From Neocallimastix lanati (nom. inval.) (Eukaryota; Neocallimastigomycota; Neocallimastigomycetes; Neocallimastigales; Neocallimastigaceae), in NCBI GenBank assembly GCA_016946835.1, contig JACVTC010000359.1, forward strand, positions 1 through 38,839: a DNA stretch of 38,839 nucleotides, written 5' to 3'. The notes under the pieces are model-generated. The model made no database searches, was not told where the DNA came from, and saw only the letters and a program-made list of their open reading frames with translations. A program made the position numbers and the translations under genes. Positions 7,331 to 28,400 of the stretch are shown piece by piece. Positions within the stretch are counted from its first letter, which is position 1. Every line of letters starts with the position of its first letter.

Positions 7331-9850
7331 ATGATTTTAAAAATAAATTTAATTTCAATTTTTATTTATTTTATTTTTTCAAATTGTAATGTCGGCGGAC
7401 CGAGAGTTGAAAAAACAATAATCAATGAAGAAAATATCCACTATACAATTCAAAATGAAAATTATTATTTTGAAAATTATAAAGGTGAAGAATTAGATTC
7501 TGAATGGAACTGGGTAAAAAATATATCAATAGTGTATACTTGGGTTGACGGTTCGGATATCAATTTTTTAAATATAAAAAATAAATATAGTAATGGAAAT
7601 CGCAAACCCAGTAGTAGATTTCGGTCAGTCGATGAACTGAAATATTCTATAAGGTCACTAGAAAAATATATGCCTTGGTTTAATGGAACCATATATATTG
7701 TAACATTAAATCAAGTTCCTAAATGGTTAGATACTCGAAATAAGAGAATTAAAATTATTAATCATAAAGATATTATTCCAAAGCATATCTACCCTACGTT
7801 TGATTCTAACACGATCGAACTTTTTTTAGATAAAATACCAGAAATTACTGAACGATTTATATATTTTAATGATGATTTGTTTCTAAATAACTATGTTCAT
7901 CCAAGTCTATTTTTTACAAAAGAAGGATTTTATCCAAAGATATATAGAAATACAATGAATCTCTATGTTAATGAAGTACAAATTAATGAATTTATATTAA
8001 ACAATACACATTCGTTTTGCTGTAACAATTTTTTTACTGATAGATTAGCAAAAGATTATTTTAATGATAAATTTGTATATCAATATGTCCATCATGTTCC
8101 TTTTGTGCTTTATAGAGATTTATTTGAAAACTATCGTCAACTTTTCAAAGAAGAATTTAAAAGTAGAATTGCGTATCGTTTTAGAAACCATTTTAAAATT
8201 CAAACACTTTATCTTTACCAAGTATTTATGGAGTATGCAACGCAACATGTTGATTTTCCTTTTAAACTCGGAGGAAAAGGTAAAGCTCAAAATTTCCAAG
8301 GATTACCTTTACCTCAAGAAAGCACGATAAAAAAATTTTCAGCTGAAGTTGTAGATTGTTGGACAGCAAAAAAATATATACGATTTGGTGATGTCGTTAA
8401 CGATGATAGAAAAAACAAGTCCACTTTCAAAATGTTTAAAGAGGACACAAAATTAATATTTTTTAATATGAATGATAATTACAATAAAAACAGCGTATCT
8501 TATGATTTTATTGAATTTTTATATGAAAAATTTCCATCTCCTTCTTCTTTTGAAAATAAAACAATGACTTCGATTGAAACATCATATTTTTCAAAAATCG
8601 ATAAAATAAATGAATTTTCTAATAAAATGATAGAAGCATTACCAGACAAATTTAATCAAACAATTATTGAAAATTTTCAAAAAGTCATTACAGAAAATAA
8701 ACATGAATTAATTAAAAAGTATATTAATGATACCCAAACAATATCAGGTTCATTAAAAGAAATTAGTGATAATGAAAAAGAAGAACTCAATATACTTTTG
8801 AATTATAACGGTACTGAATTAGAGAAAAAATGGAAATGGTGTGAATCAATATCTATTGTGTATTTAATAGAAAATCATAGAAACCATACGCATCTAGAAG
8901 TTGACCTTTTATCATTGAAATACTCTTTACGATCCATTGAAAATTATTTACCTTGGTTCTTAGGTAAAATATTTATTATTATTCCAAATTTGAGTATTAT
9001 TAAATATTTACCATGGCTAAATTTAAAAAATTCAAGAATTAGTCTAATTAATCAAACCGATATTTTACCAAAACAATTCCAATTAAGCGCCAATAGACAT
9101 TTGGTAGAACTTTATTTGGACAAAATTCCAGGTCTATCTGAAAAATTTATATACATGAATAGTTATTATTATTTTAAAAAATATGTTCATCCACGCTTCT
9201 TTTTTAGTAAAGAATTTTATCCCAAGTATTATTTTAGAAATTGTCTGAATAGAGAAGGAGAAGAAATAGCAAAGGACGAGGATATTTCCTTTTACAAAAC
9301 CTATTCAATTATTAAGGAATATTTTGGAAAAAACTATATTAAATTACGCTATCTAAAAGAAGTACCTTTCACATATTATCGTGATTTATATGAACCGGTT
9401 AGAACACTTTACAAATCTTATATAGAAAAATCAATATTAACTGATATAAATAATAATAATAATAATTTAAACTTTGAATTGCTCCCACTGTACCTTTTAT
9501 CTACTTACAATGTATACGGAACGGAACAACCCTTCTTTCCAGAATATGTTGTTGGCTTTGGAAAATTAATGAATCTTCCACCTCCAATTCTTAATAATAA
9601 TAGAACTATTGATTACTATGGTTTTGATATTGCGTCTCCTGAAATTGAGCAAAAGACTATGATTCTATATAGCTTTTTTTCCAATAATACCATTGATAAC
9701 TATAGTACTATTTATAATATAAAAAATTCTAAAAGTATTTTTTTTAATATATTAATAAAAAATAGAAATAAAATTAGTATTGACCATTTAATATCATTAT
9801 TTAAAATGCTCAACTCATTCTATGATAAAAAGTCTTTATATGAAAATTAA
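7331..9850 (+). CDS. Secreted tandem Stealth-family protein (GlcNAc-phosphotransferase-like), second module degenerate
   Basis: This 839-residue protein has a hydrophobic N-terminus (1-18), so it is probably lumenal or secreted. Module 1 carries all four Stealth regions: CR1 IVYTWVDGSD (67-76); CR2 from about 97 to 206 with RFRSVDELKYSIRSLEKY and the acidic FNDD (179-182); CR3 around 254-310 with VPFVLYRDLFE; CR4 around 374-407 with FFNMND and FPSPSSFE. Stealth proteins move a hexose-1-phosphate onto a sugar acceptor; the family includes bacterial capsule enzymes and animal GNPTAB. Module 2 (about 494-839) repeats the layout (ELEKKWKW..ISIVY, LKYSLRSIENYLPWF, VELYLDKIPGLSEKFIYMN, EVPFTYYRDLYEPVRTLY). 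TWVDGSD has become LIENHRN, FNDD reads MNSY, and NMND aligns with NILI. Module 1 is probably the enzyme and module 2 a non-catalytic partner. Acceptor and donor are unknown. It is a single exon. Confidence 0.9.
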   Translation: MILKINLISIFIYFIFSNCNVGGPRVEKTIINEENIHYTIQNENYYFENYKGEELDSEWNWVKNISIVYTWVDGSDINFLNIKNKYSNGNRKPSSRFRSVDELKYSIRSLEKYMPWFNGTIYIVTLNQVPKWLDTRNKRIKIINHKDIIPKHIYPTFDSNTIELFLDKIPEITERFIYFNDDLFLNNYVHPSLFFTKEGFYPKIYRNTMNLYVNEVQINEFILNNTHSFCCNNFFTDRLAKDYFNDKFVYQYVHHVPFVLYRDLFENYRQLFKEEFKSRIAYRFRNHFKIQTLYLYQVFMEYATQHVDFPFKLGGKGKAQNFQGLPLPQESTIKKFSAEVVDCWTAKKYIRFGDVVNDDRKNKSTFKMFKEDTKLIFFNMNDNYNKNSVSYDFIEFLYEKFPSPSSFENKTMTSIETSYFSKIDKINEFSNKMIEALPDKFNQTIIENFQKVITENKHELIKKYINDTQTISGSLKEISDNEKEELNILLNYNGTELEKKWKWCESISIVYLIENHRNHTHLEVDLLSLKYSLRSIENYLPWFLGKIFIIIPNLSIIKYLPWLNLKNSRISLINQTDILPKQFQLSANRHLVELYLDKIPGLSEKFIYMNSYYYFKKYVHPRFFFSKEFYPKYYFRNCLNREGEEIAKDEDISFYKTYSIIKEYFGKNYIKLRYLKEVPFTYYRDLYEPVRTLYKSYIEKSILTDINNNNNNLNFELLPLYLLSTYNVYGTEQPFFPEYVVGFGKLMNLPPPILNNNRTIDYYGFDIASPEIEQKTMILYSFFSNNTIDNYSTIYNIKNSKSIFFNILIKNRNKISIDHLISLFKMLNSFYDKKSLYEN

Positions 9851-11469: not shown

Positions 11470-12725
11470 GCGCTACAGAACTTGCTTAGAAGAACTAGCC
11501 GTGCAACAGAACTACTTACCTTCAAGGACTACTGTTGTTACTGAACTACTTTCCTTCAAGGACTACTGGTTCTACAGAGCTACTTAAGTTACCTTCAAGG
11601 ACTACTGGTGCTACTGAACTTTCCTTCAAGGACTACTGGTGCTACAAAGCTACTTAAGTTACCTTCAAGGACTACTGGTGTTACTGAACTACTTTCCTTC
11701 AAGGACTACTGGTTCTACAGAGCTACTTAAGTTACCTTCAAGGACTACTGGTGCTACTGAACTTTCCTTCAAGGACTACTGGTGCTACAAAGCTACTTAA
11801 GTTACCTTCAAGGACTACTGGTGTTACTGAACTACTTTCCTTCAAGGACTACTGGTTCTACAGAGCTACTTAAGTTACCTTCAAGGACTACTTGTGCTAC
11901 TGAACTACTTTCCTTCAAAGACTACTGGTGCTACTGAACTACTTACCTTCAAGGACTATTTGGTGCTACAGAACTACTTACCTTCAAGGACTACTGGTGC
12001 TGCAGAACTACTTACCTTCAAGGACTACTGGTGCTGCAGAACTACTTACTTTCAAGGACTACTGGTGCTACAGAACTTGCTTAGAAGAACTAGCCGTGCA
12101 ACAGAACTACTTACTTTCAAGGACTACTGGTGCTACTGAACTTTCCTTCAAGGACTACTGGTGCTACTTAACTTTCATTCAAGGACTACTGGTGCTACTT
12201 AACTTTCATTCAAGGACTACTGGTGCTACTTAACTTTCATTCAAGGACTACTGGTGCTACTTAACTTTCATTCAAAGACTACTGGTGCTACAGAACTACT
12301 TACCTTCAAGGACTACTGGTGCTACTGAACTTTCCTTCAAGGACTACTGGTGCTACAGAGCTACTTAAGTTACCTTCAAGGACTACTGATGCTACTGAAC
12401 TACTTACCTTCAAGGACTACTGGTGCTACTGAACTTACCTTCAAGGACTACTGGTGCTACTGAACTTACCTTCAAGGACTACTGGTGCTACTGAACTTAC
12501 CTTCAAGGACTATTTAGTGCTACAGAACTACTTACCTTCAAGGACTACTGGTGCTACAGAACTTTCATTCAAGGACTACTGGTGCTACAGAACTTGCTTA
12601 GAAGAACTAGCCGTGCAACAGAACTACTTACTTTCAAGGACTACTGGTGCTACTGAACTTAAAAGGAATACTACCCCTGCCGCCGTTTCACCGTGCTATT
12701 GAACTTACAAGAACTACTGCAAATG
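11470..12725. repeat. GC-richer minisatellite with 31/34-bp units and higher-order repeats
   Basis: Units are built on the core TTCAAGGACTACTGGTGCTA and come mainly as a 34-bp form (spacer with CAGAACTACTTACC) and a 31-bp form (spacer with CTGAACTTTCC or CTTAACTTTCA). Several longer units contain GAGCTACTTAAGTTACC. A higher-order unit of 143 bp is marked by TCTACAGAGCTACTTAAG at 11571, 11714 and 11857. A distinct 47-bp insert containing TTGCTTAGAAGAACTAGCCG is present three times, at 11472-11518, 12067-12113 and 12584-12630. Four 31-bp units run in series at about 12160-12270. Open frames across it change frame from unit to unit, so they are products of the repeat and probably not proteins. 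The array fades out by 12725. Confidence 0.93.
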
Positions 12726-13593
12726 CTGCCATACTGATTGTTAATTTGTTAATTTTATTTTACTTAGTCTTTTATATAAAATTTACTTTTTTATCTTTAA
12801 ATAATATAATGTATTTTTTAATAAATGTAATACATAAAAATATTTAAATCTAATAAAGTAATTGATATATATTTGCATCTAATTCTAAAAAAATTTCATT
12901 TTTTTTCATTTTTATTTGAGTTTGTGTTATATTTAATTTATTGTTACTACCATTATATTATTATAAAATAATATTTTTATGGTTTATTTTACTTATATTG
13001 TATATCCATTTATTATATTCTATAATACATTATTTTAAAAGTTCTTTTAAAATCTAATTTAATAAATAAACTATTGTAATAAAAAAAATTATTTCTATAA
13101 CAATGAACTGTTTAAACTCTATATATATCAAATAGGTCTTACGATATAAAAATTTCAAATAATAATAACCCCAGATTATTTTTTTATTTTTATTTTATTT
13201 TATTTTTATATTTTATTTTATTTTTATTATTTTTTTAAATTTTACATATTTAAATATTTTTTAAACATTAATATAAATTATTTTAATTACATTAGTTAAT
13301 TTATTTTTTTTTGAAATTATATATTTTATTTCTCATTATAAAAATTAAAATCCTTTTTATTTATTTTTTTAATATTATTATTTCTAATTATTAATTATTG
13401 CTATTATTATTTATTTTTAAAATTGTATTTTTTTATATTTATTTATTATCAATTATTATCTTTTTTTTTATATTTTGTAGTTTCATATATTATCTATTTA
13501 TATTTTATTTTTTTTATTGATAATAATACTTTTATTTAATATATATATCTATAATTTTATTTTCTAATGCATTATATTTATTTTTTTAAACTA
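12726..13593. other. AT-rich 3' flank of the giant gene
   Basis: This is plain A/T-rich DNA between the minisatellite and the stop codon of the giant minus-strand gene. It presumably holds that gene's 3' UTR and polyadenylation signals. On the minus strand AATAAA-like strings are frequent, so none can be singled out. No gene is seen. Confidence 0.5.
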
Positions 13594-16500
13594 CTATTTT
13601 TTTGGTTCAAGTGTATAATAAAAACGTTGACCGATATAATTATCTTCCCAACCAAAAGATGTATTTCCGGAAGGTGAAGAATCTTCACAATCTCTAACTT
13701 TAAGAGTAGAATCATCATAAAAATCTACACATTTTTCGTTTCCGTCATAATAAACATAAATATTTCTTTCATAACGACCTCCATATTTGAATTTTGCCTT
13801 TGCATTCTTACACTGGGTTATTTTTAAACGTCTTTCATAACCGTCCTTACTACTAAGATTTACGTCTAAACAATAGTCCGATTTATTTCCATTTCCACCA
13901 TTAGTAGCATTTGATAAGTACCAAGTAGATTTTGAATTCGAAGAAGTCATTAACCAAGAATAATATTTAACACTACTTGATAGTTTAAATCGGTCTTGAC
14001 TTTCAATATTTTTGACCCCTAAATATTCTTTGTGTCCTTTATCATATTTACTACGGAAGGTGTGAACTTCATATATATCCGGTACGTCATAGGATATGAT
14101 CCATTTATATTTATTATCATTTTCATTGCACGTACTGTAGCTAATACTACTGTTTTTGTCTACATAAAGACATTCTGTTTTATCATCATTCATCCAAAAA
14201 CCAAATTTGTCATTTTTGCTAATAATTGCCATGTTGGTATTGGATGCGTCTGATGATAATCCTATCTGATTATTAGAACTTTTAATTAAATATTTTCCAC
14301 TGCCGACGTTCTTTAATAAACCATTACCACTCTTTGCGATTTCCCAAATAAATTCATTACCATTGCACTTATTATTTAGACTTACCGAGAGTTTACCAGA
14401 GCTGTTCACAGACAAACATCCAAGTCCGTTTTGATTATTAATTATATAGACCTTCTGAGTATCAGCTAATAAAGGCTTATAAGAAGAAAACATCCAAACA
14501 TGTTTAGGATTGCTTGAATCACATTTTTGAAGTTCGTTTGTTGGATAAAGACAGTCCTTCTCGAAACCCTCAATCCAAAATCCATATTTAGATTTTGATG
14601 GATCGGCAATGTTAAGGACATTGGAATCATAGAAATAGGAAGTAATCATTAATTTATCGTCCGAGCTTTTTCGTAAAAATTGTCCAGTTTCAACATTTTT
14701 CCATAGTCCACTTCCATTTTCTGGTATTTCCCATAAGTAGGAATTACCGTCACATTTATTATCAATCTTAACTTCATTACTAGATTTTCCTACCGCGTAT
14801 AAACAACCTTTAGTAACACTATTATAGATGTAAACTCGCTTAGTTTTTACCGGAGGTTTCTCAGACAAAATCCATCGTCCAGCATCTCCATATCGAGTAC
14901 ATTCGTTATTTTTAACGGTACTATCGGATTCATATTTATTTGAGGTGGTTAAATGGAAACAGCCAAGAGAATAAGGTTTTTTGATATCTAATTTCGTTAT
15001 ATCATTCATGACACTACTATTTGTTATGTCAGAATCAGTATTTACAATACCATTTCTATTAGATGATATATAGGTATTAGAACCAACATTTCTCCAAATT
15101 CCTTTTCCACTGTAAGGTATTTCCCATAAAAATAAGTCTCCATTACATAAGCCGTTAGCTCTTATACTTTTATCACTACTTCTTTCATTAACATAGAGAC
15201 ATTTGTTGGTATCTTTTTCATAAATGTAAACACGTTTCACCTTATCAGGGGCTTGTGGTGGATACGAGAAATAGACCTTTTTTTCATTTTTATAAATTTC
15301 ATAAAATTGCAATCTATTCTCCGTACAGGTTAATCCTACCTCTTTTTTATCCTTCTTTTTGTTAAAAGCACTAAAACTACTTATATCGTCTTCTGTATCC
15401 TCGTTTTCAAATAAATTCTCATAAGAAACAACGGTAGCTGTATCTGTCAAACTGTTACTTTGATCCATATATTGTATTACAAAATCGTAATTTTCATCGA
15501 ATTTAGCATGCGCAATTTTTTCGGTTTCGGAAATTGCATAATAGGACACTTCACCCTTGAACAATATTTCCTTTTTATTTTTTGGATCATTTTTATCAAT
15601 TGATCGATATTTAAATCCTTCCTTTGTAAGAACTAACCCGACATGACTGCACATTATTCTATGCCCTAAGTAGAAAATATCTCCTGCAATTAACCCGTTT
15701 CCTACCGTGTCCTTATTGAAATTTTGTATGACCTCTTCGGTATCCAAGTTTTTGAACCTGCAATTTAAATTTGGATTTTTATCGCTTTTGTAGTTATTAT
15801 TAAAATTAATTTGAATATCATTTTCAATGCAGGTAATACCATAATTATAGACCCGATTGAGATTCCATTCATCTTCAATTAAAATTTCGTCTCCGTTGCT
15901 AATCAATGTTCCATTCGTTGCAATTTGTAAAGAAGATATGTTATCATCGTAAAATCTATAGAAATTGGTGGTATCAATTTTGAAATTTCCTATAGTTTCC
16001 AATTTATAAATGGTATTACATTCGGCATCATTACCTTTTGAAACTAATCCATTTTTACATCGACTTTCTATATAAGGTCTATACTTCCAGAAGACATTCT
16101 CAGTATTGTTTTCTTCCGCTATTAAAATCTCATCATTAGAGTTACATATCATAGTGACATTCGGTTTTCCGATAGATACTAATGGTTTTACGGTTTGTCG
16201 ATTGGAGACCATAAAGTTTCCAGTAGCAATATCTAAATAAATCTTTTCTTGCTCTTTATAACTGTGTAAGGCATGATTATTATGATCTACAAGTTGATAG
16301 GTTTCTTGATCAATCGAAAGGTCGCTTCCAAAACTTCCTTTTTCATTTTTCTTAATGTACGATAGACATTTAACAGTACCGTAATTAAGAGAATTTTCCT
16401 CGCCCAAACAAATCTCATTATTATACTTTTTATTAAGTAAGTAATTTTGGTGCTCTCTGCATTTATCCATTACTTTATCAATAATTTGATTATTATCATC

Positions 16501-19500
16501 ATCATATAAAGCTAAAAAGGTGTTTGCTTCTACCTGATCACATCGCAGAGATATGCTTTTAGGAGGTTTAGTTATATATTCCGCTGGGATATCCTGAAAT
16601 ACGGAATTTCCATTAATGACTAATGGGGCAGACATATCATTAATATTTAACTGTAAATTGTAGACCTTCTCATACGAGAAAAATTTATAATCAGTAACAC
16701 TGATATTAGCACATTCCGTTCCATCTTTATCAATAATTTTATCTCCAGGATATAAAACTTTATCATAGGTGAATAAATTATTGGCATCGTAGGTTTTAGT
16801 AATCATATTTCTTAATCTATTACCATTACTATCTTTTACATAGAAACCATATTCAAGATCACAACGTATTTCGGCATAGTCAGCATTCACCTTATTTGGT
16901 ATTTTAGTGATATAGGTATTATCACCATCTAGTGTATAAACAAGATTGAAAGTATCCTTTTCTTTTTGGAAATTGATATAACGCAGTTTGTTATTCAAAC
17001 CTTTACCCTTATCAGGCTCATAATACGTATGATTATTATAATTGAATTGAATACCCTTTTCTGTGAGCTTAAAGCATTCCTGAAAAGCGGAATTGTACAA
17101 AAGTTCTCCAACATACAAGTTATCAGGCGCATATATTCTTGTTTCTTCATCATAATTTTCTCGTGTGGAAAGAATTTGCTTCTTTTCTAATGCAGGATAC
17201 CTCCAATATTCGTTACCTTCCTCATCATTAATAACGGCATACATGACTTTATTCCTTTCAAATATACATTTTAAAATTAGATCGCTCGTGAAAGCATTGT
17301 TAAATACATTGACGTCATTTAACAATAATTTTCCCTCGTATTGATTGAACTTTAGATTATTATTATCTATAAGTTCTGAAACTTCGGCGTCCATCGGAAT
17401 TGGTTTGGTTTGATCACTGAAAAAGAGACCAATTTTCTTTTTCCCATTGGAATCCATAACAGATTTACCATTTTCATCCATGATTTCATCAATTCGAATA
17501 CATGGCTTTTTGAATTTATCATCCACGTAGATCATATCATAGATGATTTCATCCTTTTCAAGGGAAGTTCTTTTCTCCACCTTTGGATATTCCAAATAGA
17601 CTTTTTCTTTATTTGGACTATATAAAACAAACTTATTACCTCCATGGTAGTTCATACATTTTCCAATGAGCTGATCATTTCCACTTAGATTATTCACTTT
17701 ATCAATCACGGTACCTTGATTGAAAAAAAGACCGAATTCATCCGAGCTTTTAACTTTAACATAATTATCTGCCATCTGTTTATTCATTTTTTCTTTATTA
17801 CTACTTTCGGTATCAGTTTTTTCTTTCTTATAATTTTCCATTTTATAAATAGTAATGTTGCCATGATTAAATTGCGTGAACAATTCCCCATCCTCAAAGA
17901 AAAGGCATCTTTCACCGGTTTCCTTATTAAATAAACTTTCACCATAAAATAAGGGCTTCGATTCTGAAATTTCATATTTTTTAGAGTATTTTGGTAAAGT
18001 CATGATTCTTTTATCATCGCGATAGATCGCTGCCTTCAAATCCCCATAGATCGTTTCACATCTTACACTATAAGTATGTTTTTCATTTTTCATATTGGCA
18101 GGCGTTATTTCCCTATCATCAATTAAATTAATAGATGTTCCGTTGGAAAAATAAACGTATACACCGGTTTCTACGACATCTAAATATTCTATATTATCAT
18201 TAACGTTTTCTAAAACATCAATGTCCTCCTCATCTTCTGGATCCACCTTTGGATTTGCTGAGTCTTCTGTGGCGACTTCCTCTGCGTTTTTAAGAAGTGA
18301 GTCTTTCGTATTAACATTAATTAGTCTTCCCTTATTAATCTTTAAACAAAATTTACCGTTAGAATCGGTTTCATCTGGAATTAATTCTTGCATTGGACGC
18401 AATTGATGAGTTGCCGTATTAGCAATTAATGCTTTAAACTGTTGGGTTGGGTAATTCCATATGACGTCTTTACTAACCTTATCAAAAATTTCAATATTAT
18501 TTTCATCTTTGCAACGAAGTTCAATAGCATGTTTATCAGGATTATATATAGTAATGGTGGTTCCTTCAATTTTTTGGTCATTAATATCCTGAATATAAAG
18601 TTGTTGATCATCCAAATATAAAGTTCTACCTTTTATTTTTGAATCATATTTTTCAGTGATTAAATCACCCGTACTATTAAATAGCCCCTCGGCCTTGAAC
18701 GTTAAACATGCTACATTTTCATTTTTGTCATTTTTATAATAAATCGAACGATCCACCACCATTGAATTACTGTAGGGTTCATTCGTAATGGAATAAATGA
18801 TACGGCTTGGATATTCCCATACAACTGAATTAGTATTGTCTAGTAGAACTACTCCATATTTGTCGCTATTAATATTACATCTGAGTTTAGTTGGTAACGC
18901 CAAATTTTCATCCTCTAAATCCAAAACATTTTGATCGTCCAATGTTAAATAACCGGTTTTCTTATCCAACTGTAATTTCGATTCCGTATTGATTTCATAC
19001 GGGAAATACGGTTCTTTATCTCCGTAGAAATAAACTCCTTTCGTTCTTAAGGTGACACAAGGAAATTCATTGATGATTTTACATTTACTGTTTTTATTAA
19101 CTTTACATATACTATTAATCTGATCAACGCTTATGTTATAGGAAAGTGTTTTATTGTAAAAATGATTCTCATTTAATTCGTCTTTAAATACTTTGTATTT
19201 ATTGGCGTTAGCTTGGATTTTCACATGTTCCTTTCTACACTGGGTTGGTGATGGATCCCCTTTACATTTACAGTACCATAACGCATCTAGACAATAGCTT
19301 TCATCCTTCTTCAAAATAAACTCATAATCGTTATTATCTTTTCCGAATATTCCCTTTAAGGTATCCTCCTTTTGTTTCTTTTCTTCTTCGCAATCTTTAT
19401 CCCTTTTAGTATCATCTCGGTAGATGAGCGCTTCTAAATTTTTCAGATAATGTTCTTCATTATCACTGATCATTTCTGTCAATTTTTTCGTTGGAGGGAA

Positions 19501-22500
19501 AGTCCAAATTAAAGTATCCGTCGGATTATTTTTATTGTCAAATTTTCTTTTTAAAATTCGAATGTATCCATTGGTGTCTGGTGTAATATACATAATGTAG
19601 TAGCATACTTTGGAATCCTTACAAGTTTCCCCTTCGATTCCCGTAGTGAACAAAACATGATCGTTACAATCATAAATATTGAAAACCCCATTGTCATTTA
19701 ATTTTCCATACACAATTCTCGAATTTCTATCGGTAATCGGTTTCAAGTCAATGTAGGAATCATCGATAACGATATTTTTATCATCGACCTTTTCAAATTT
19801 TTGAAGTAAATTTTGATATTTTAGATGAAAACTGGTAAGAGGCATTACCGCTGTACTGTAGTAATTATCATTTTCATCAAAAATATAATTGTCCTTAGAG
19901 GATTCCAAATCAACCTCATTTGAGATTTCCAAATCTCTATATTCCTTTGATTTTCTAAGTTCTTCATACGCGTCTTCGGTATATCTATTAATAATTTGTT
20001 CGCCCACTCGTATGATAGAATTGTCGAATCCAGAAATCTTGTTTTCCGATTTATAGGTGGTAAGAAAAGGTAAATTTGGATTTCTTGCTTCTGCCTCACA
20101 TGCATTATAAAATTCGTGTTCTTTATAGATCAAAAATTCATGATACGGGGCGTGATTCCACATATTCCAAACTTCCTCTCCGTTTTCATTGACAATTCTA
20201 AACGTTCCCGCATTCAATACCTCCAATCTATACCTTCTATACAAATGTTTATTATCCTTTTCAGGATCATTTAGCGTACTCATGATCACATAGTCAAACT
20301 TATTTAATATCCTCATGACTCCATCTCTCCCCACAATTAGCTTATACGGTCCTTTTCCTTGCCATAAATTCGCGGTTTTGCTTTCCCATATGGTGACGTT
20401 GTTGTCTTTAAAAACCAGATTACCACTACTATTTAAGATTAAATGAAATCTTTTATTTTCTGATTTTAAACCTTCATTCGAATAGATGGTATTGTTACAT
20501 CCCCCGAAGTACATAAAGTTTCCTTTATAAGCAATTCCATCCGGGAGTTGTAAATACGAATTATTTTTTTTTATTGAAGGATTAATGGCTTCGTATAAAT
20601 ATTTCTCTGGTATATTTTTAGTTACATCTTCATTCTTAAAGGGATACCCATACTTCACTGGTAAGTAATATCCATCACGGTCAAGATAGGAACTATATTC
20701 ATTGGCTTTGATTTTGTAACGCCAAATAGGTACACCTAATGGATCATACAAGGTTAATCCATCATACGTGTTGTACCTATTTTGATCAAAAGTACTTACG
20801 ACTAAATAGGAGGTCTCTGGAACGGTACTTAATCCGTTTCCATTCCAACCCACGATTAAGTGCTGATGTTCCGGCTTTATATTCGACCATAATACTACAT
20901 TTTTTGTTTTAAATTTATTTTTATTGGTTAAATTTTCAATATAACTTTTTATTTTACTATTTACCTTTGACGTATCAGAAGGAGATGGAGAAGAAGAAGT
21001 AGTAGTAGTAGTGGTAGTAGTAGATGTTTCCGTAGTGGTTTGTGAACTTCCATTTCCCTGGGTTCCATTATCCGTTGTAGCATTACCATTTTGCGATTTT
21101 TCTTGACTTTGCGCCTCATTTATTTTTTGAATACTATTCTGAGTCATTCTACATTTACTTTTAATTTGGTCACAATTTAAAAGCATATAATCCTCTATGG
21201 CCTCCACAATACTACTATCCATTAGCGATTCACATTTATCCAAAATAGTACAGTCAACGGTTCCAGAATTACCGGTCTCACCATTATCCGAAGAAGAAGA
21301 GGAAGGTTTTTCATTCATTTTCTCACTACAAATAAAATCGATTTCATCTTGAGAATAATAAATATTGTTTCTATTTTTTTTATCCTGACAAGTATTGGAA
21401 TTTCTTAGTTCCGATTTAAATGCATTAAATAATTTATTGTCGCTTTTCACGGTAACATGATTAACGATACATTTATTATCTTTATTTTTAGTGGGATTTT
21501 GACAGTTACAGAACCAAAGCGCATCCTTACAGAAAACGTCATCCTTACTTTTAATAAAATTGATATCAATATTATCTTTTTCGAGATGCTTCAAATATTC
21601 GGTTACCTTAGAAACTTCTTTAGGCTTATCATTAGGATCCGGTCGAATATTATTTGGATCGAAATCTGGTAAATCTGGATTTTCCATGTAGTTGACGCCA
21701 TTGAACTCCTCAGCATAAGTTCCAACGGGCTCAAACATTGTTTCTTCGGTGAGAACTTCAAGATGGTTTAAATTAGATATTTTGAAGTAGGCCTTACTTT
21801 TAGCGTAACTAGTCTGCGTATTAAAGTATTCGACATCATTATTACCGAAAACCAGATCATTATCTTTATTCATGTATAATTCAAGGGCATGGCCTGTACT
21901 ATATTCACCAGCTAAACTAGAGATTTTCTTTATATTCTGATCTGTACCTATTTTTTGTCCAGTTTCTAAGAAATAATCAAAGGTTCGAGTTTTTGGTGCA
22001 CTAGGACGCAAACTGGAGTAGATATTGGTGAACTCACTATCCTCGAGTTCGAAATGGTAGTCATCCGTGTTTCCTTTACAATCCAACAACAGAGACTTAT
22101 AATTTTTATCTTTTATAAGTTTACTATCGAAAACTTGATCCATCATATGGGTGACCGCGTCATCATCAATATCAATATTGACAATACTTCGAGTATTGAT
22201 ATTAGAACGTGTTTTATCATTATAATCATAACAGGATGCAATTTGGTAGTTACGAGTAATTTTTTTATATATCAATACTTGACATGGTGTGTTTCCGTTA
22301 TTGACAACGCTTTCTTCAAAAGTATAGGAAACCCCTTGACTGGTAGTTTTATCCGTTCCTTCAGTCTTCGAATAATCATTACTAGTGGATTGTGATTCAC
22401 TTTTTCCCGAAGTATTACCTATTTCCCTTGTTTCCGTTTCGTCATTTCCTCTACTAGTTGACTTTGACCTTTCTATGGCATTCATTACGGATCTGGAGCC

Positions 22501-23562
22501 ACCATTAGACTTTGTAGTACTTTCGGATTCAGAAACAGAATCACTTTCGCCTCTTGAATTTCCTGTGGAATCAGATTTTCCAACTGTATGATCCGTGGTA
22601 GTACCAGTTGATTTATTATGAGTGGTACCCCTATCTCTAGAATTCGTTATATTGACGTCATGACTCGTACCTTTAGATGTGCTTTTCTCACCTCCCCCAT
22701 TGACACTAAAAAATGGAACTCCTATACTAACCCCACCATTAAGTCCCGAAGTTTCATCACTATGTGATCCCGTATTATCACTACTTGAACTACCCTTATT
22801 AGAAGTACTTCCATTATCACTAGTATTTTGTGTACCATCCGAGTTACTATCATTTTCTTCATGGTTCCACGTATTCTCTGTATGCTTTTCGTTTACCTTT
22901 GTTATATCTTTTACTATTTGTTCATCCCAAGTTTTAGCTTCATCCTCTTGTATTGAGTTGGATAGAGCTTCTTCCACGATTTCAGATATAGTTTTACTGA
23001 AACTGGAGGATGAATTTTGGTCGCTATGGTTTTCTATCGTGTAGACGTCGCTGGTGCCATGAGTTTCTTGTACCGAAATAGAATACGATTCATCGAAATT
23101 TACGGTATAACTTAAGGAGGAACTACCACCGACTCCTAAACTTTGAGTTGTGATATCAATGAGTTTCCAGCCTTTTAAAAAATTAGGGGCATTGACCATT
23201 CCCGTTAACTCCTCATTGTAAGGATTTGCTTCCGGACTGACACTTGTCAATAGATTACATGTTCTTCCGTCGGATAAATCAAATTTTTCATACTCTTTTT
23301 TCTCCTCTCTCTTTCTTTTTCTAGAAACTATTTTTCGTTTTGCTGGTATCCCATAAATATTGACCAAGTTTTCCTCGTCCGTACAATTGCCATAGTAAGT
23401 ATAAAAAGGATTATCAAAAAAAAATTCGTATTCTGAATATACTGACCTGATATCTTTAACATCAAGTTTATCAAATTTTATTTTGCCATGGTTATTATAA
23501 ATACATAATGAACCAAACGTAATCGTTATTAAATTTGATAAAATTATGTAGCTTATTAACAT
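13594..23562 (-). CDS. Giant secreted multi-domain lectin-like protein (3322 aa)
   Basis: A single uninterrupted frame with a signal peptide (1-18). A basic stretch RKRKREEKK (81-89) resembles a Kex2/furin site. Residues about 143-420 are Ser/Gly/Thr-rich with a hydrophobic island GGVSIGVPFFSV (276-287). A cysteine module (CKDALWFCNC, near 680) recurs near 1430 (CLDALWYCKC). Residues about 885-1150 resemble bulb-type mannose lectins, e.g. LILNSSGNLVF and WES. From about 1550 to 2765 roughly ten repeats of 110-150 residues share an (L)RC start followed by a W/Y-x-YP end, as in WEYP, WNYP and WRYP. Residues about 2775-3322 hold four ricin-like beta-trefoil units (VYIY..CLY..LWEIP; last unit CLDVN...CVDF). 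There is no catalytic domain, dockerin or C-terminal membrane segment. The role is probably glycan binding or adhesion outside the cell; a scaffold role is possible. Tandem repeats without introns suggest growth by internal duplication. Confidence 0.85.
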   Translation of the reverse strand: MLISYIILSNLITITFGSLCIYNNHGKIKFDKLDVKDIRSVYSEYEFFFDNPFYTYYGNCTDEENLVNIYGIPAKRKIVSRKRKREEKKEYEKFDLSDGRTCNLLTSVSPEANPYNEELTGMVNAPNFLKGWKLIDITTQSLGVGGSSSLSYTVNFDESYSISVQETHGTSDVYTIENHSDQNSSSSFSKTISEIVEEALSNSIQEDEAKTWDEQIVKDITKVNEKHTENTWNHEENDSNSDGTQNTSDNGSTSNKGSSSSDNTGSHSDETSGLNGGVSIGVPFFSVNGGGEKSTSKGTSHDVNITNSRDRGTTHNKSTGTTTDHTVGKSDSTGNSRGESDSVSESESTTKSNGGSRSVMNAIERSKSTSRGNDETETREIGNTSGKSESQSTSNDYSKTEGTDKTTSQGVSYTFEESVVNNGNTPCQVLIYKKITRNYQIASCYDYNDKTRSNINTRSIVNIDIDDDAVTHMMDQVFDSKLIKDKNYKSLLLDCKGNTDDYHFELEDSEFTNIYSSLRPSAPKTRTFDYFLETGQKIGTDQNIKKISSLAGEYSTGHALELYMNKDNDLVFGNNDVEYFNTQTSYAKSKAYFKISNLNHLEVLTEETMFEPVGTYAEEFNGVNYMENPDLPDFDPNNIRPDPNDKPKEVSKVTEYLKHLEKDNIDINFIKSKDDVFCKDALWFCNCQNPTKNKDNKCIVNHVTVKSDNKLFNAFKSELRNSNTCQDKKNRNNIYYSQDEIDFICSEKMNEKPSSSSSDNGETGNSGTVDCTILDKCESLMDSSIVEAIEDYMLLNCDQIKSKCRMTQNSIQKINEAQSQEKSQNGNATTDNGTQGNGSSQTTTETSTTTTTTTTSSSPSPSDTSKVNSKIKSYIENLTNKNKFKTKNVVLWSNIKPEHQHLIVGWNGNGLSTVPETSYLVVSTFDQNRYNTYDGLTLYDPLGVPIWRYKIKANEYSSYLDRDGYYLPVKYGYPFKNEDVTKNIPEKYLYEAINPSIKKNNSYLQLPDGIAYKGNFMYFGGCNNTIYSNEGLKSENKRFHLILNSSGNLVFKDNNVTIWESKTANLWQGKGPYKLIVGRDGVMRILNKFDYVIMSTLNDPEKDNKHLYRRYRLEVLNAGTFRIVNENGEEVWNMWNHAPYHEFLIYKEHEFYNACEAEARNPNLPFLTTYKSENKISGFDNSIIRVGEQIINRYTEDAYEELRKSKEYRDLEISNEVDLESSKDNYIFDENDNYYSTAVMPLTSFHLKYQNLLQKFEKVDDKNIVIDDSYIDLKPITDRNSRIVYGKLNDNGVFNIYDCNDHVLFTTGIEGETCKDSKVCYYIMYITPDTNGYIRILKRKFDNKNNPTDTLIWTFPPTKKLTEMISDNEEHYLKNLEALIYRDDTKRDKDCEEEKKQKEDTLKGIFGKDNNDYEFILKKDESYCLDALWYCKCKGDPSPTQCRKEHVKIQANANKYKVFKDELNENHFYNKTLSYNISVDQINSICKVNKNSKCKIINEFPCVTLRTKGVYFYGDKEPYFPYEINTESKLQLDKKTGYLTLDDQNVLDLEDENLALPTKLRCNINSDKYGVVLLDNTNSVVWEYPSRIIYSITNEPYSNSMVVDRSIYYKNDKNENVACLTFKAEGLFNSTGDLITEKYDSKIKGRTLYLDDQQLYIQDINDQKIEGTTITIYNPDKHAIELRCKDENNIEIFDKVSKDVIWNYPTQQFKALIANTATHQLRPMQELIPDETDSNGKFCLKINKGRLINVNTKDSLLKNAEEVATEDSANPKVDPEDEEDIDVLENVNDNIEYLDVVETGVYVYFSNGTSINLIDDREITPANMKNEKHTYSVRCETIYGDLKAAIYRDDKRIMTLPKYSKKYEISESKPLFYGESLFNKETGERCLFFEDGELFTQFNHGNITIYKMENYKKEKTDTESSNKEKMNKQMADNYVKVKSSDEFGLFFNQGTVIDKVNNLSGNDQLIGKCMNYHGGNKFVLYSPNKEKVYLEYPKVEKRTSLEKDEIIYDMIYVDDKFKKPCIRIDEIMDENGKSVMDSNGKKKIGLFFSDQTKPIPMDAEVSELIDNNNLKFNQYEGKLLLNDVNVFNNAFTSDLILKCIFERNKVMYAVINDEEGNEYWRYPALEKKQILSTRENYDEETRIYAPDNLYVGELLYNSAFQECFKLTEKGIQFNYNNHTYYEPDKGKGLNNKLRYINFQKEKDTFNLVYTLDGDNTYITKIPNKVNADYAEIRCDLEYGFYVKDSNGNRLRNMITKTYDANNLFTYDKVLYPGDKIIDKDGTECANISVTDYKFFSYEKVYNLQLNINDMSAPLVINGNSVFQDIPAEYITKPPKSISLRCDQVEANTFLALYDDDNNQIIDKVMDKCREHQNYLLNKKYNNEICLGEENSLNYGTVKCLSYIKKNEKGSFGSDLSIDQETYQLVDHNNHALHSYKEQEKIYLDIATGNFMVSNRQTVKPLVSIGKPNVTMICNSNDEILIAEENNTENVFWKYRPYIESRCKNGLVSKGNDAECNTIYKLETIGNFKIDTTNFYRFYDDNISSLQIATNGTLISNGDEILIEDEWNLNRVYNYGITCIENDIQINFNNNYKSDKNPNLNCRFKNLDTEEVIQNFNKDTVGNGLIAGDIFYLGHRIMCSHVGLVLTKEGFKYRSIDKNDPKNKKEILFKGEVSYYAISETEKIAHAKFDENYDFVIQYMDQSNSLTDTATVVSYENLFENEDTEDDISSFSAFNKKKDKKEVGLTCTENRLQFYEIYKNEKKVYFSYPPQAPDKVKRVYIYEKDTNKCLYVNERSSDKSIRANGLCNGDLFLWEIPYSGKGIWRNVGSNTYISSNRNGIVNTDSDITNSSVMNDITKLDIKKPYSLGCFHLTTSNKYESDSTVKNNECTRYGDAGRWILSEKPPVKTKRVYIYNSVTKGCLYAVGKSSNEVKIDNKCDGNSYLWEIPENGSGLWKNVETGQFLRKSSDDKLMITSYFYDSNVLNIADPSKSKYGFWIEGFEKDCLYPTNELQKCDSSNPKHVWMFSSYKPLLADTQKVYIINNQNGLGCLSVNSSGKLSVSLNNKCNGNEFIWEIAKSGNGLLKNVGSGKYLIKSSNNQIGLSSDASNTNMAIISKNDKFGFWMNDDKTECLYVDKNSSISYSTCNENDNKYKWIISYDVPDIYEVHTFRSKYDKGHKEYLGVKNIESQDRFKLSSSVKYYSWLMTSSNSKSTWYLSNATNGGNGNKSDYCLDVNLSSKDGYERRLKITQCKNAKAKFKYGGRYERNIYVYYDGNEKCVDFYDDSTLKVRDCEDSSPSGNTSFGWEDNYIGQRFYYTLEPKK

Positions 23563-25429
23563 AATATTTTTTTTTGACTTTTATTATTTTTTTACTCGCT
23601 TATTCCTGAATATATATTTATTTTATTAATTTTTTTTTTATTTTTTAATTATTTTTTAAATAATTTAAATTTACAATTATTTAATTTCAATTTTTTTTTG
23701 TTTTAATTTATTATTATTTTTTTTATATATTTATTCATTGAATTTCTATTTTTTATTTATTTATTTAATACTTATATTATTTATTTATTTAATTTATATA
23801 AAGTATTAAATTATTTATTTATTATTTATTCATTTAATTTTTATATATTTTTAGGTTTTTTATTTATATATAATCAAATAATAATATTTTTTTTATAATT
23901 TTTAATAATAATAATAATAATAATATGAATATTATTTTTTCATATTTATATAGATTTATTTTAATTATATTTCCTTTTAATATAATTTATTTTCTGGTTT
24001 ATATATTTTTATTAATTTTATATGACTTAAAATTTTATTAAATTTATATAATTTATATTTAATATATTATATATAAATATATCAAATAAAAATATTATTA
24101 CTTATTTATTTAAATCTATTGTAATACTATATAGTTTTTTTTTTTTAAATAAAAAAAACGGAAACAATAAATCATTTAAAAAAAATTTTTAATTTAATAA
24201 ATATTTTTTTTAATTTTATTTTTAAAATTTTTTAATTATTATATATTAAAAATATAAATTAAATAATTAACCAAAATTGAGGTAAGGATTTTTAATTATT
24301 TCCTTTATTGAAAATAAATTAAGTAGGTTAAAAATTTAAATTTTTATAATTTATATTAAAATTTTAATACAAATATTTTGATATGGTTTTAAATTACTTA
24401 ATTACAACCGAATACTTTTACTTTTACATTATTGGTTTAATAGTATGATTAACAGAAAATGAACACAATAATCATATAATTAAACCCACAAAAATAAAAT
24501 ATTATATAAATAAAATAATATATTTTGTTTTTATAATAGTACATAATAATTTTATGTTTCAAAGTAAATTAGGTAATTTTCTTTTATATTTTTTTAGTTA
24601 ATAATTTTATTCATTATTAAAGTTTTCAATATTGATATTACAAGTAATTATATATATTTATATTATATTTATAATATATTTAAATTACTATTATAAAATA
24701 CAATCTTATTCAGTCAATTATATATATAAATTTATATCAATGATATATTTATATATCCTTTTATATGGGACTATGAATTAAATATATATGTATTAAAAAG
24801 CGGATAAAAATTAAAATTTATCATTTAATAAATAATTAATATATATTTATAATAAAAACTAAGTATATATACATTTAATAAAAATTAATGTTACTTATTA
24901 TATTGAATAAAACTTGTAATAATTATAATTAATATATTTAATTTATATAAAAATCTATAATAAAATAGTAATTAGATATAAAATTATAAAAATAATATAA
25001 ATCAAATAAAAAAAATTAAAGTAATAAAATTTTTAAAAATAAAATATATATATATATATAAAATTAGAGAAAAATTTAATATTAATATACATAGAAAAAA
25101 GCAGAAAAATAATATGAATATTAATATATAGAAAAAGCTGTAAAAAAAAAAAATTGAATAAAAATATAGATAAAAAGTAGTAATAAAAAAAAATTAAATA
25201 ATAAAATATAGATAAAAAGCAGTAATAAAAAAAATTGAACAATACAGATAAAAAAATCTGAAAAAAAAAAAAATTGGAAAATAACATATATAAAAAGTCT
25301 TAAAAAAATTAAATATATATGTATATATAAAAACCAAAAATAAAAAAAAAAATAAAAAAAAAAAAAAATAGAAAAAAATAGTTTTAAAACTATTAACAGT
25401 ACATAAAAAAAAAAATTAAATTCAATAAA
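23563..25429. promoter_or_regulatory. Shared divergent upstream region of the giant gene and the 1351-aa gene
   Basis: This 1.87-kb stretch lies between two divergent start codons and contains no credible gene. It is almost wholly A/T. T-rich tracts lie next to the giant gene (23563-23900) and A-rich tracts next to the plus-strand gene (25000-25429), so each gene has an A-rich leader on its own coding strand. No specific regulatory site can be named. Minus-strand open frames at 25033-25792 read only F, L, I and Y, or shadow the start of the plus-strand gene. Confidence 0.5.
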
Positions 25430-28400
25430 ATGAATAAATATATATATGTCATCTTTATAATTTACTTTAATTTCAGTATCGTTTTCGGTAATACTGAAAT
25501 TAACATTGACAATCCGTTTTTTTTTGAAGACATATTTCTTCTTCGGCAATGTCATAATTACCAAAATTTTGGAATAAATAATATGGTCGATACAGTAATC
25601 GATGATATTATCGATAATATTATCGGTGACTTTAGCACTGAGGAAAAAATTGATAACTTCAATAATGATATCGGGTTTTCTCTTTTTGACATTCCTAATT
25701 ACGCCAGAGATAAAAATAATATCTACAAAGAAATAACCAGCATGGACGACAACATTTATTACGAAGATGATTATAACGAAAAATTTTTTCATTTATTTAA
25801 CAGTTTTGCAGGAAAAATTGGTAATAACATTATAATGGAAGCATATAACAGGTATGAAAGTACTGATATCTACAGCACTGACAAATATAGTTTACATTAT
25901 TACAAGTTATTAAATTTTTTTTTGGATGAAAGTGAAGAAGAAATTACGGATAAAACAATAGAAAATTGGATAACTGAAATGATGCAAGATTGCTCTGATA
26001 TTAAAAATAATATAATAAAGGATGACCTATCCGTTATTGCCATATTATTTAGAGAAATGAAAACGGTGAATAAGTTATTATTTGGTAGAAAATTATCCAA
26101 ATTAGATTTATTTTTTAACGATATATTTTGCGAGAGTGACATCACCCTTTTATACAATATTGATGTCTTAATAAATAGTATTTCATCAATAATGGTGAGT
26201 CAAAGGAATTATGAAATTACGAGTACCATGAAAGAAATTAATAGAAGCCAAATCGAAGAAATATTTAATAAAAATCAAACAATTTCTGAAAACATGTCTT
26301 TGGCATATCTTCAATCGATGATCAAATATTACACCAATAACAACAACAGTAACAAATTCGTCGGTGTATATGATACCTTTAATGCCATAACCAGTTATAT
26401 TTATTATCACTTTAATAATTTTGAAATAGAATTTAATAATAATAAAAGAGAAAACAATGAAAATAAAAAAAAAGAAAATAATAAAAATGAAAAAGAGAAT
26501 GGGGAAGAAAACAAAGACAATGAAGATAGCAAGGATAACAAAACGGAGAAAAAATTTAAATTTAAAGGATTAAAAGACAATTACGCTATGCAGGCATTCG
26601 ATTACTTAATGGAATTTGTTGATAAGAACAACAGAAAAAGTTATAACGACCTGGATAGCATCAATTTAACAGAGTTGGACGATATTATAAAACAAAATAT
26701 TTTTACCATTTATGAACAGGTGACAGGAAATGATGAAATTCTAAAAAAATTCTTTAGTGGAATGTTTCAGATCTTTGAATATTTCTCAGTTAAAAACAGT
26801 TTAAATTATCGAAAATACCTATCAGAAAATGCATCAAATGAATTCATAGATTATAAAGAAAATCCAAAGGAAATGGCAAAAGCCGTCGATGAGTTAAGGA
26901 AATTAAAAATAATTGTAGAAACCGTCAATGATATTATTTATCAAATAAATATAAAAGAAGGAATGAAAACCATCTACAATCCTAAGGAACCAAACTCAAT
27001 GATTTATCTAAAATTTTATATGATCATTAAGCAAGATGAACTCATCGACAATACAAACAACTTCCTTGAAGATATTTCAGAATTAAAAAAAATATATAAA
27101 AGTATTAATAAATTAACTAATGATGAAATTAGTATGGATTTATTCTATAAAGATTCCTCGGATACCCTCGTCATTGACAATGAATCTATAGGCGGAATCG
27201 AAGGTTCCTTTATGAATAATTTTACGTATCTTTTAGAAGCGGTATTAAAAAAAATTAGGGAGGAAGAATTTTATTCTAAAAGATGTATGAGTAAATTGAA
27301 CCATAAAGATTCCACAATGAAAGAAAACGAAAATTACCGTAATTTTATATCTTCGAAATATCAAATTTTGCCTAAAATTTATTATGATATTAAAAATTAT
27401 TATTTTGATTTAGGAAGCGATTGTAGTAATAATAAAAATGAAATGCTTTTATGGAATGAACAATTCGCTAATTTTTGTTTCCCTTATATATTTTGTGCTA
27501 ATCCCGATAATTACGAGAAGGACAGTAATACGGATGAAAAGAGTAAATCTGGTAAGACTGCCGATTCCAAAGAGACTAAAGATAACGAAGATAAATTTTT
27601 AATTTTTTATAATATCAAAAATAACACTCTCGGAAATTTAAGATACGATGATATTAGGATTAAAATTAATTCAATAGATTCATTTGAGAGTAATGAAATT
27701 GATTCCATTTTAAATAATATAAAGGCATATTTAGAAGAAAATTATATTCAAGAAAGGATTAAATCTTTATATGATTTAAAAAATATATACGAAAAAATAT
27801 TATATTTCGATAAATTTATTTTTCAAAATTTACCCTATAACAAAGTAGAAACATTCAAAATTTCAATGGATCCAACAGATTTGGATCTATTAAATGGTAT
27901 ATTTAATATAAAAATCAAATATAAAGATATTCTAATGGAGCATGTCCCTGATGACATTAAAAACAATTCCGTGGAAGATGCGGAAGACGCCCAAAAAGAA
28001 AAATTTATGGATACCATGGACGTCATCATCAATGATAACGAAGACATGCTCTTTGATAATTATATAGATAAAAATGTTTATCAATTTTCTTGTGATACAA
28101 ACTACTATACCGAAGCTAAAAATAAGTATGAGTTACGGAAAACGGAATATTTAAATCATAATTATATTATCAAGAATGTATTTGTAAGATATTTAATTGA
28201 AAATACAATTTTATATCAAAATGTGATTACCTTATTTAATGAGAATGACATCTATAGTAAAATAAACGAGGAAGCCTTTAATTCCGATATTTACTCCTAT
28301 GCAAGTAAACGATTTATTGATACAAAAGATATTCCATTTTATTTTTTCAATTACGGTATCGATGAGTATGTACAATATATAAATAAACATCACTATAATA

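What the first reader, a model, noticed from the sequence alone, without database searches (positions are those of the whole stretch)
13594..23562. 3322-residue secreted protein combining bulb-lectin-like, tandem RC/YP and beta-trefoil repeats
One intron-free frame joins several putative sugar-binding repeat types and no enzyme domain. The middle holds about ten repeats of roughly 130 residues, each with a conserved cysteine early (starts near residues 1559, 1682, 1832, 1967, 2096, 2228, 2338, 2469, 2575 and 2742) and in many copies a W/Y-x-YP end. I do not know this architecture. It could be a surface adhesin, a plant-cell-wall binder, or a scaffold for other secreted proteins. Anaerobic fungi use very large repeat-bearing scaffoldins whose repeats might look like this, so that link deserves a direct test.
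Basis: partly seen in the sequence, partly recalled or inferred. Interest (0 to 1): 0.75.

Follow-up and report, generated by a model that had tools for sequence, protein, structure and literature searches.

The report
Giant secreted multi-lectin of gut fungus
An anaerobic gut fungus carries a real gene for a 3,322-residue secreted protein built largely of sugar-binding-type modules and ten copies of an undescribed two-cysteine module; it most likely sticks to sugars rather than holding together the fungus's cellulose-digesting complex.

Summary
One intron-free frame of 3,322 codons (381 kDa) lies on the minus strand at 13594-23562. Ten ~123-residue units, each with a cysteine pair, are real and recur in paralogues. 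It is no assembly join: related frames of 2,891-3,044 codons exist in the same 199 Mb genome, with dN/dS 0.15-0.22. The genome is dockerin-rich, so the host is almost certainly an anaerobic gut fungus.

The bulb-lectin module is supported (best E 1.3e-8 to solved lectins), but its mannose motif is absent. Ricin-type trefoils are supported. The RC/YP unit matches nothing significantly in Pfam or PDB; two beta-rich models are weak, so kinship with bulb lectins is only suggested.

The scaffoldin link is not supported: a different family in this genome, with other repeats and frames up to 6,055 codons, fits published ScaA better, though I found it with a probe recalled from memory. Best reading: a secreted, anchorless multivalent lectin.

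Unexpected: contig C204 carries this locus circularly permuted and overlaps itself, implying a ~51 kb circle or tandem unit.

The parts
13594..23562 (-). whole gene: 3,322-codon intron-free frame, 381 kDa unprocessed, 37 N-glycosylation sequons, 68 cysteines
   Evidence: paralogues
23506..23562 (-). signal peptide, residues about 1-19 (cleavage site inferred)
   Evidence: hydrophobic N-terminus; no signal-peptide program was run
23158..23505 (-). N-terminal cysteine-bearing segment, residues 20-135
   Evidence: conserved C20, C60, C102 in five sequences
22288..23157 (-). Ser/Thr-rich segment, residues 136-425, with alternating (period-2) pattern in most of its length and a glycine-rich apolar turn near 274-292; not a loose linker
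   Evidence: period-2 signal (absent in window residues 221-300); dN/dS 0.087 and 0.071; no PDB or Pfam match
21688..22005 (-). first bulb-lectin-like stretch, residues about 520-625 (degenerate)
   Evidence: profile comparison with the main bulb-lectin module P 0.00075, reversed control 0.5; no Pfam hit alone
20968..21537 (-). cysteine-rich segment and Thr/Ser linker, residues 676-865; motif FCKDALWFCNC, repeated as YCLDALWYCKC near 1424
   Evidence: sequence
20068..20925 (-). main bulb-lectin module, residues 880-1165; Pfam B_lectin stretch at 1010-1061
   Evidence: no QxDxNxVxY mannose motif
19468..19860 (-). further lectin-like stretch, residues 1235-1365 (assignment weak)
   Evidence: conserved in the family; comparison with the main lectin module P 0.062 against 0.46 reversed
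18805..19200 (-). RC/YP unit 1, residues 1455-1586
18445..18786 (-). RC/YP unit 2, residues 1593-1706
   Evidence: model
17986..18411 (-). RC/YP unit 3, residues 1718-1859
17581..17991 (-). RC/YP unit 4, residues 1858-1994
17194..17559 (-). RC/YP unit 5, residues 2002-2123
16801..17157 (-). RC/YP unit 6, residues 2136-2254
16474..16791 (-). RC/YP unit 7, residues 2258-2363
   Evidence: model
16072..16428 (-). RC/YP unit 8, residues 2379-2497
15778..16056 (-). RC/YP unit 9, residues 2503-2595 (weakest, E 6.8e-9)
15256..15603 (-). RC/YP unit 10, matched residues 2654-2769 (partner cysteine 2638 lies just before)
14113..15246 (-). ricin-type beta-trefoil repeats, residues 2773-3150; missing in the paralogue C185
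   Evidence: RicinB_lectin_2 E 0.001, below cut-off; absence in C185
13597..14115 (-). C-terminal ricin-type trefoil, residues 3150-3322
   Evidence: Ricin_B_lectin E 1.7e-4, below cut-off; shared with the family

Best explanation
The gene encodes a secreted, anchorless, very large multivalent lectin of an anaerobic gut fungus. Shown: the frame, the family, its constraint, a bulb-lectin module and ricin-type trefoils. Inferred: after secretion through the classical route the protein is N-glycosylated and disulphide-stabilised; the ten two-cysteine units form a rod of small beta domains that spaces the lectin heads; the lectin modules and trefoils bind glycans of plant fibre, of the fungal wall or of rumen microbes by avidity from many weak sites. 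Its use is adhesion or cross-linking outside the cell, not catalysis and not docking of enzymes. Which glycan is bound is unknown; the canonical mannose motif is missing, so the bulb modules probably bind something else or act as structure.
For: Signal-like N-terminus and no other hydrophobic segment. Bulb-lectin profile matches to 27 solved sequences at E up to 10, best putidacin L1 1.3e-8 and plant agglutinins 1.3e-5; Pfam B_lectin 8.7e-5 in the window, 1.1e-6 in C174, 4.2e-6 in L048. Ricin-type trefoil 1.7e-4 and 0.001 in the window, 9.3e-9 and above the curated cut-off in L049. Whole-frame purifying selection, dN/dS 0.22 (C185-C247) and 0.15 (C174-C180), including the Ser/Thr-rich part. 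The bulb-lectin module heads a wider family here: 96 matches, 56 of them (counted by hand, one per frame, alleles and duplicates included) in frames of 1,000 codons or more; two that I read combine Ser/Thr-rich N-part, bulb lectin and ricin trefoil. No Pfam enzyme or dockerin match.
Against: No binding, expression or proteomic datum was available. All lectin matches inside the window itself are below Pfam's curated cut-offs. The mannose motif QxDxNxVxY occurs in 0 of 6 family sequences. The RC/YP units, the largest part, have no proven fold or function: models have pLDDT 68 and 63, and Foldseek gave 0 matches at E <= 0.001. The Ser/Thr-rich N-terminal part is unexplained by a plain adhesin. 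One RC/YP-like unit passed in one of the two ~1,900-codon relatives (L049 E 1.2e-5; not L048).
Confidence: 0.55

Rival explanations
1. It is a lectin-guided membrane-active or antimicrobial protein: the Ser/Thr-rich N-terminal part is a long amphipathic beta hairpin of the kind used by beta-pore-forming proteins, the lectins and trefoils aim it at glycans of rumen competitors.
For: Strong period-2 alternation in residues ~160-240 and ~281-420 and a conserved glycine-rich apolar turn (GGVSIG... in the window, GGGSIGAFGIGVNG in C185); strong constraint there, dN/dS 0.07-0.09; best solved match of the lectin module is a lectin bacteriocin, putidacin L1, and pyocins L1/L2 follow; lectin plus pore former is a known arrangement in fungi (recalled).
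Against: No Pfam or PDB match for the N-part. The arms would be some 130 residues long, far longer than known pore hairpins (recalled). Alternation is absent at window residues 221-300. The like-looking N-parts of L048/L049 do not align with it better than a reversed control (P 0.052 against 0.032).
Confidence: 0.2
2. It is a fungal scaffoldin (ScaA type) whose RC/YP units are the long-sought fungal cohesins.
For: Very large, secreted, repeat-rich, non-catalytic, no bacterial relatives found, in a genome with at least 150 dockerin matches; published scaffoldins vary widely in size and the fungal cohesin is described as elusive (PMC8262932, passages).
Against: Another family with different, cysteine-rich GYY...LIxC repeats has frames of 5,209 to 6,055 codons, 143 of 150 scored candidates matching (813 candidates), and fits the >500 kDa description; it shows no similarity to this family (best blastp E 0.40, best RC/YP domain E 0.012 at 3.3 bits). 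Neocallimastix genomes are reported with 60-98 scaffoldins (PMC12341934, passages), while this family has about four distinct loci. The reference family was found with a probe from memory, so this is not a direct comparison with ScaA.
Confidence: 0.06
3. The RC/YP array is a purely structural spacer or wall component with no ligand of its own.
For: Units are 11-26% identical with little kept beyond the cysteine pair and hydrophobic pattern; no conserved surface motif.
Against: dN/dS in the array is low for C174-C180 (0.096), and unit-by-unit identity between paralogues is kept in register.
Confidence: 0.17
4. The frame is an assembly join or a pseudogene.
For: Fragments with stops elsewhere (C747, C35, C223, C33, C24) and a broken copy on C324.
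Against: Intact frames of the same order of modules on C185, C410, C174, C180 and the identical locus on C204; dN/dS well below 1.
Confidence: 0.02

Closest known systems
Bulb-type (GNA-like, beta-prism II) lectins, Pfam B_lectin PF01453
   Same: Residues 1010-1061 and neighbours match by profile; plant agglutinins and curculin/neoculin among the hits.
   Different: No intact QxDxNxVxY motif; embedded in a 3,322-residue chain; below Pfam's cut-off.
Lectin-like bacteriocins (putidacin L1, pyocins L1 and L2)
   Same: Best profile match of the lectin module (E 1.3e-8; 6e-5 and 3.3e-4 for pyocins).
   Different: Those are ~260-280-residue bacterial proteins; the match covers about 40 residues; no evidence of bacterial killing here.
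Ricin-type beta-trefoil lectins (PF00652, PF14200)
   Same: C-terminal repeats in the window and, above cut-off, in a relative.
   Different: Window matches are below cut-off; no toxin or enzyme domain attached.
Fungal ScaA scaffoldins of anaerobic fungi
   Same: Very large, secreted, repeat-rich, non-catalytic.
   Different: Smaller; different repeats from the family here that best fits ScaA; carries lectin modules.
Chimerolectins (lectin plus another domain; PMC12355970, seen in a search listing only)
   Same: Combination of lectin types with another module in one chain.
   Different: Size, the ten RC/YP units and the Ser/Thr-rich N-part.

Membership tests
Fungal scaffoldin (ScaA) | binds fungal dockerins (published KD 994 nM, PMC8262932 passages) | not testable with these tools
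   no binding data
Fungal scaffoldin (ScaA) | repeats homologous to published ScaA | tested here: inconclusive
   no ScaA sequence obtainable (Haitjema 2017 not held; supplements capped at 0); no similarity to the ScaA-like family of this genome, itself identified with a recalled probe
Fungal scaffoldin (ScaA) | size above 500 kDa | tested here: not met
   381 kDa; but the same paper says classified scaffoldins span a wide size range
Fungal scaffoldin (ScaA) | present in cellulosome fractions | not testable with these tools
   no proteomics on hand
Bulb-type lectin (main module) | beta-prism II sequence profile | tested here: met
   solved bulb lectins and lectin bacteriocins at E 1.3e-8 and below 1e-3 for 15 of 27 listed sequences; Pfam 8.7e-5 but below the curated cut-off
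Bulb-type lectin (main module) | mannose site QxDxNxVxY (motif recalled) | tested here: not met
   0 of 6 family sequences
Bulb-type lectin (RC/YP units) | profile or fold match to beta-prism II | tested here: inconclusive
   profile comparison P 0.017, 0.078 and 0.008 against reversed 0.18 and 0.46; 0 PDB sequence matches; Foldseek rank 1 is bulb lectin 5j76_B but E 0.49, TM 0.24
Ricin-type beta-trefoil | Ricin_B_lectin profile above cut-off | tested here: inconclusive
   window 22.2 bits against 29; relative L049 36 bits
Aerolysin/ETX-MTX2-type beta-pore former (N-part) | profile match and membrane hairpin | tested here: inconclusive
   no Pfam or significant PDB match; alternation and apolar turn present

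The most novel reading that the evidence does not exclude
Giant lectin genes of this anaerobic fungus sit on circular or head-to-tail repeated DNA units of about 40-55 kb, one giant lectin per unit. The window would be 38.8 kb of such a unit of about 51.3 kb. Combined with an undescribed two-cysteine beta module used ten times per protein, this would be an amplifiable, fast-changing secreted lectin system comparable in logic to subtelomeric adhesin families. Contig C204 starts at window 13390, runs to 33390, later holds window 7331-9850 and 12136-22131, and its start recurs 51.25 kb on at 99.8% identity; C180 repeats its first 10 kb after 53.83 kb at 99.9%; C588 and C172 show same-strand pairs 39.8 and 54.7 kb apart by coordinates only. 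Neighbour genes are not shared between the contigs read.
Probability: 0.3. Interest if true: 0.75.

Novelty: new variant of a known kind. Interest (0 to 1): 0.5.

Why it matters
Anaerobic fungi attack plant fibre better than most microbes, yet how they attach to fibre, to each other and to rumen partners is poorly known. A constrained family of giant secreted lectins gives named genes to test. It also removes one candidate for the missing fungal cohesin and points to another family in the same genome. The two-cysteine module is a protein domain without a Pfam or PDB counterpart at the sensitivity used. If the ~50 kb circle or tandem reading holds, anaerobic fungi would have an unusual way to multiply secreted lectin genes.

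Tried and rejected
Relatives outside the genome: the search for related loci in viral contigs with the repeat region, the whole-family and the N-part alignments (3, 177 and 25 pattern matches) and in genome contigs with the whole-family and N-part alignments (101 and 31 pattern matches); none was confirmed as a relative.

RC/YP as bulb lectin: tried by profile comparison, PDB profile search and two AlphaFold models; left undecided. Negative control A3 against A4 gave P 0.94. The second model was never fold-searched because the machine stayed busy.

CcdA, DUF2865, DUF4420 and other weak Pfam hits were rejected as chance: below cut-off and inside biased or short stretches.

Relation of the Ser/Thr-rich N-parts of L048/L049 to the window's: not better than reversed. 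Shared satellite at contig ends: the unit occurs 36 times in the window and in none of the loci fetched, few of which reach contig ends. Telomere repeat TTAGGG x2: 0 in the window. Shared neighbour genes as a sign of a mobile element: none among the flanks read. Three searches for the trefoil region in the genome and more did not complete, so its spread is unknown.

Literature: Haitjema 2017 and Gilmore 2020 are not held. Of 15 listed papers for bulb-type lectin with Neocallimastix or anaerobic fungi (298 fit two of three terms), none shows the phrase 'bulb-type lectin'; this is no proof of absence from print. The lectin reported for these fungi in PMC6712302 (passages) is another type, Gal_Lectin.

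Full report
Setting. The window is the whole of contig C289 of a genome of 199,045,447 bases in 762 contigs. It is extremely AT-rich: intergenic 1 kb bins fall near 9-15% G+C and the gene itself is about 30-37%. The genome gave 150 matches over the cut-off to the fungal dockerin family CBM_10 among 150 scored of 1,440 candidates, with 0 of 14 control genomes ringing. With a size close to the Neocallimastix assemblies in PMC12341934 (187-201 Mb; passages) the host is almost certainly an anaerobic gut fungus of that kind; no tool named it.

The observation. The frame at 13594-23562 is on the minus strand, 3,322 codons, ATG to stop. Ten units with paired cysteines fill residues 1455-2769. Controls: a profile from window units alone finds ten units above 10 bits in two paralogues, none in 100 shuffles and none in reversed sequence. 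Four other cysteines lie inside the array besides the twenty (2368, 2385, 2502, 2601, which also lists 1494 just before it).

It is a gene, and one of a family. Searching residues 1500-2780 in the same genome gave 28 matches. Whole-length relatives are C185 and C410 (frames 2,976), C247 (2,891, cut by the contig end), C174 (2,991), C180 (3,044 and 2,797) and C562 (3,018, cut by the contig end); C204 carries the window's own locus (frames 3,202 and 2,340) and C324 is split. Identity to the window is 44% for C185 and C247 and 29% for C174 and C180. Module order is kept, except that C185 lacks the trefoil block at window residues about 2800-3100. dN/dS is 0.216 for C185-C247 and 0.146 for C174-C180; the Ser/Thr-rich part gives 0.087 and 0.071. 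Against this, the C-terminal 40 codons of C185-C247 give 0.98, where C247 runs into its contig end, and their repeat region is too alike to judge (dS 0.006; ratio 0.51). Fragments with stops are scattered on C747, C35, C223, C33 and C24.

What the modules are. Residues 880-1165 hold a bulb-lectin module. Pfam alone is weak (E 0.0091 for the whole protein; 8.7e-5 for the piece, 1.1e-6 in C174, all below the curated 32.4 bits), but a profile of five family sequences matches 27 solved sequences at E up to 10, best putidacin L1 at 1.3e-8 and plant agglutinins at 1.3e-5. The mannose motif is missing in 6 of 6 sequences. Residues 520-625 look like a further degenerate copy (P 0.00075 against 0.5 reversed). 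The C-terminus holds ricin-type trefoils (E 0.001 and 1.7e-4, below cut-offs). A search with the bulb module gave 96 matches of 98 candidates; by my hand count 56 lie in frames of at least 1,000 codons, 45 of at least 1,700 and 9 of at least 2,700, alleles and duplicates included. Two of the ~1,900-codon relatives, C227 (L048) and C193 (L049), of which I read 1,912 and 1,684 residues, show a Ser/Thr-rich N-part, a bulb lectin (4.2e-6 in L048) and a C-terminal ricin trefoil (9.2e-5 in L048; 36 bits, above cut-off, in L049); L049 also has one RC/YP-like unit at E 1.2e-5, L048 none that passes.

The RC/YP unit. No significant Pfam match (units 2 and 4 tested) and no PDB sequence at E up to 10 for a 26-sequence profile. 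Comparison with the bulb module gives P 0.017 or 0.078, with the next module (1235-1365) 0.008 against 0.46 reversed. The model of unit 2 has ten strands, pLDDT 68.1, pTM 0.59; Foldseek returned 886 matches at E <= 10 and none at E <= 0.001, with bulb lectin 5j76_B first at E 0.49 and TM 0.24, and bulb lectin 3mez at ranks 32 and 46 among mostly propellers and OspA. A model of unit 7 is poorer (63.1) and was not searched. I conclude: a small beta-rich disulphide domain, possibly a far relative of bulb lectins, unproven.

The N-part. Residues 136-425 are Ser/Thr-rich, yet strongly conserved and alternating in a way typical of long beta strands: for example residues 341-420 of the window exceed all of 500 shuffles for S/T, while residues 221-300 show nothing. 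A glycine-rich apolar turn is conserved. No relative is known from Pfam or PDB. It may be a stalk or a membrane-active hairpin.

Scaffoldin test. Published scaffoldins are described as above 500 kDa and repeat-rich, binding dockerin with KD 994 nM, with the cohesin domain still elusive (PMC8262932, passages). A probe I wrote from memory of the scaffoldin repeat matched 143 of 150 scored candidates (813 in all) in this genome, in frames up to 6,055, 5,752, 5,669, 5,286 and 5,209 codons. Stretches of two of these (L046, L047) are full of GYY...LIxC repeats and do not resemble the window family (best blastp E 0.40; best RC/YP domain 3.3 bits, E 0.012). That family, not this one, is the likely ScaA. 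The step rests on my recall for the identity of the probe.

How it most likely works. Secreted, without anchor, the protein presents several lectin heads on a chain of small disulphide domains and binds glycans by avidity, for attachment to fibre, wall or neighbours. Shown: frame, family, constraint, lectin modules. Inferred: secretion route, rod shape, ligand, use. Confidence 0.55; the main rival is a membrane-active or antimicrobial lectin (0.2).

The unit. C204 (60,691 bases) reads window 13390-33390 in its first 20 kb at 99.9%, holds window 7331-9850 at 45195-47714 (100%) and window 12136-22131 at 50000-59999; its start recurs after 51.25 kb at 99.8% over 8.7 kb. Thus the window's order is permuted in a circle. 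Near the very end of C204 the copy degrades (79% with stops), as unpolished ends do, or as a diverged copy would. C180 (78,045 bases) repeats its first 10 kb after 53.83 kb at 99.9%. C588 and C172 show the same by coordinates only (39,839 and 54,734 apart). Circle, tandem array and assembly artefact are not told apart. Neighbouring genes differ between contigs, against a conserved mobile element.

Noticed in passing
whole window; C204 (L035, L036, L037): C204 carries the window circularly permuted and overlaps itself with a period of about 51.25 kb; C180 has a period of about 53.83 kb, C588 and C172 similar by coordinates. Circle, tandem array or assembly artefact.
   Followed up: partly
L046, L047 and other places: Large family of GYY...LIxC repeat proteins with frames up to 6,055 codons, the likely ScaA-type scaffoldins of this genome.
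   Followed up: partly
places; L048, L049: Wider family of bulb-lectin proteins of about 1,700-2,570 codons, many on short contigs.
   Followed up: partly
window 1-3594: Satellite array of period about 39, extremely AT-rich with purines on one strand, at the contig end.
   Followed up: partly
window 11501-12659: Minisatellite of period 31/65/143, unusually G+C-rich for this region.
   Followed up: no
window 7331-9850, +: 839-aa protein with Stealth CR2 (E 5.3e-57) and CR1 regions, that is a phosphotransferase-type protein; relatives on large contigs.
   Followed up: partly
window 5829-6539, -: 236-aa secreted protein with three chitin-binding (CBM18) modules, Chitin_bind_1 E 6.2e-25.
   Followed up: no
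window 25430-29485, +: 1,351-aa secreted-looking protein with no Pfam match at E up to 1.
   Followed up: no
L042 against L045: C185 and C247 are nearly identical in the repeat region (dS 0.006) but dS 0.2-0.29 in the N-part, which points to recent gene conversion or recombination.
   Followed up: no
window residues 678-696 and 1424-1442: The motif F/YCxDALW-x-CxC occurs twice, flanking the lectin region.
   Followed up: no
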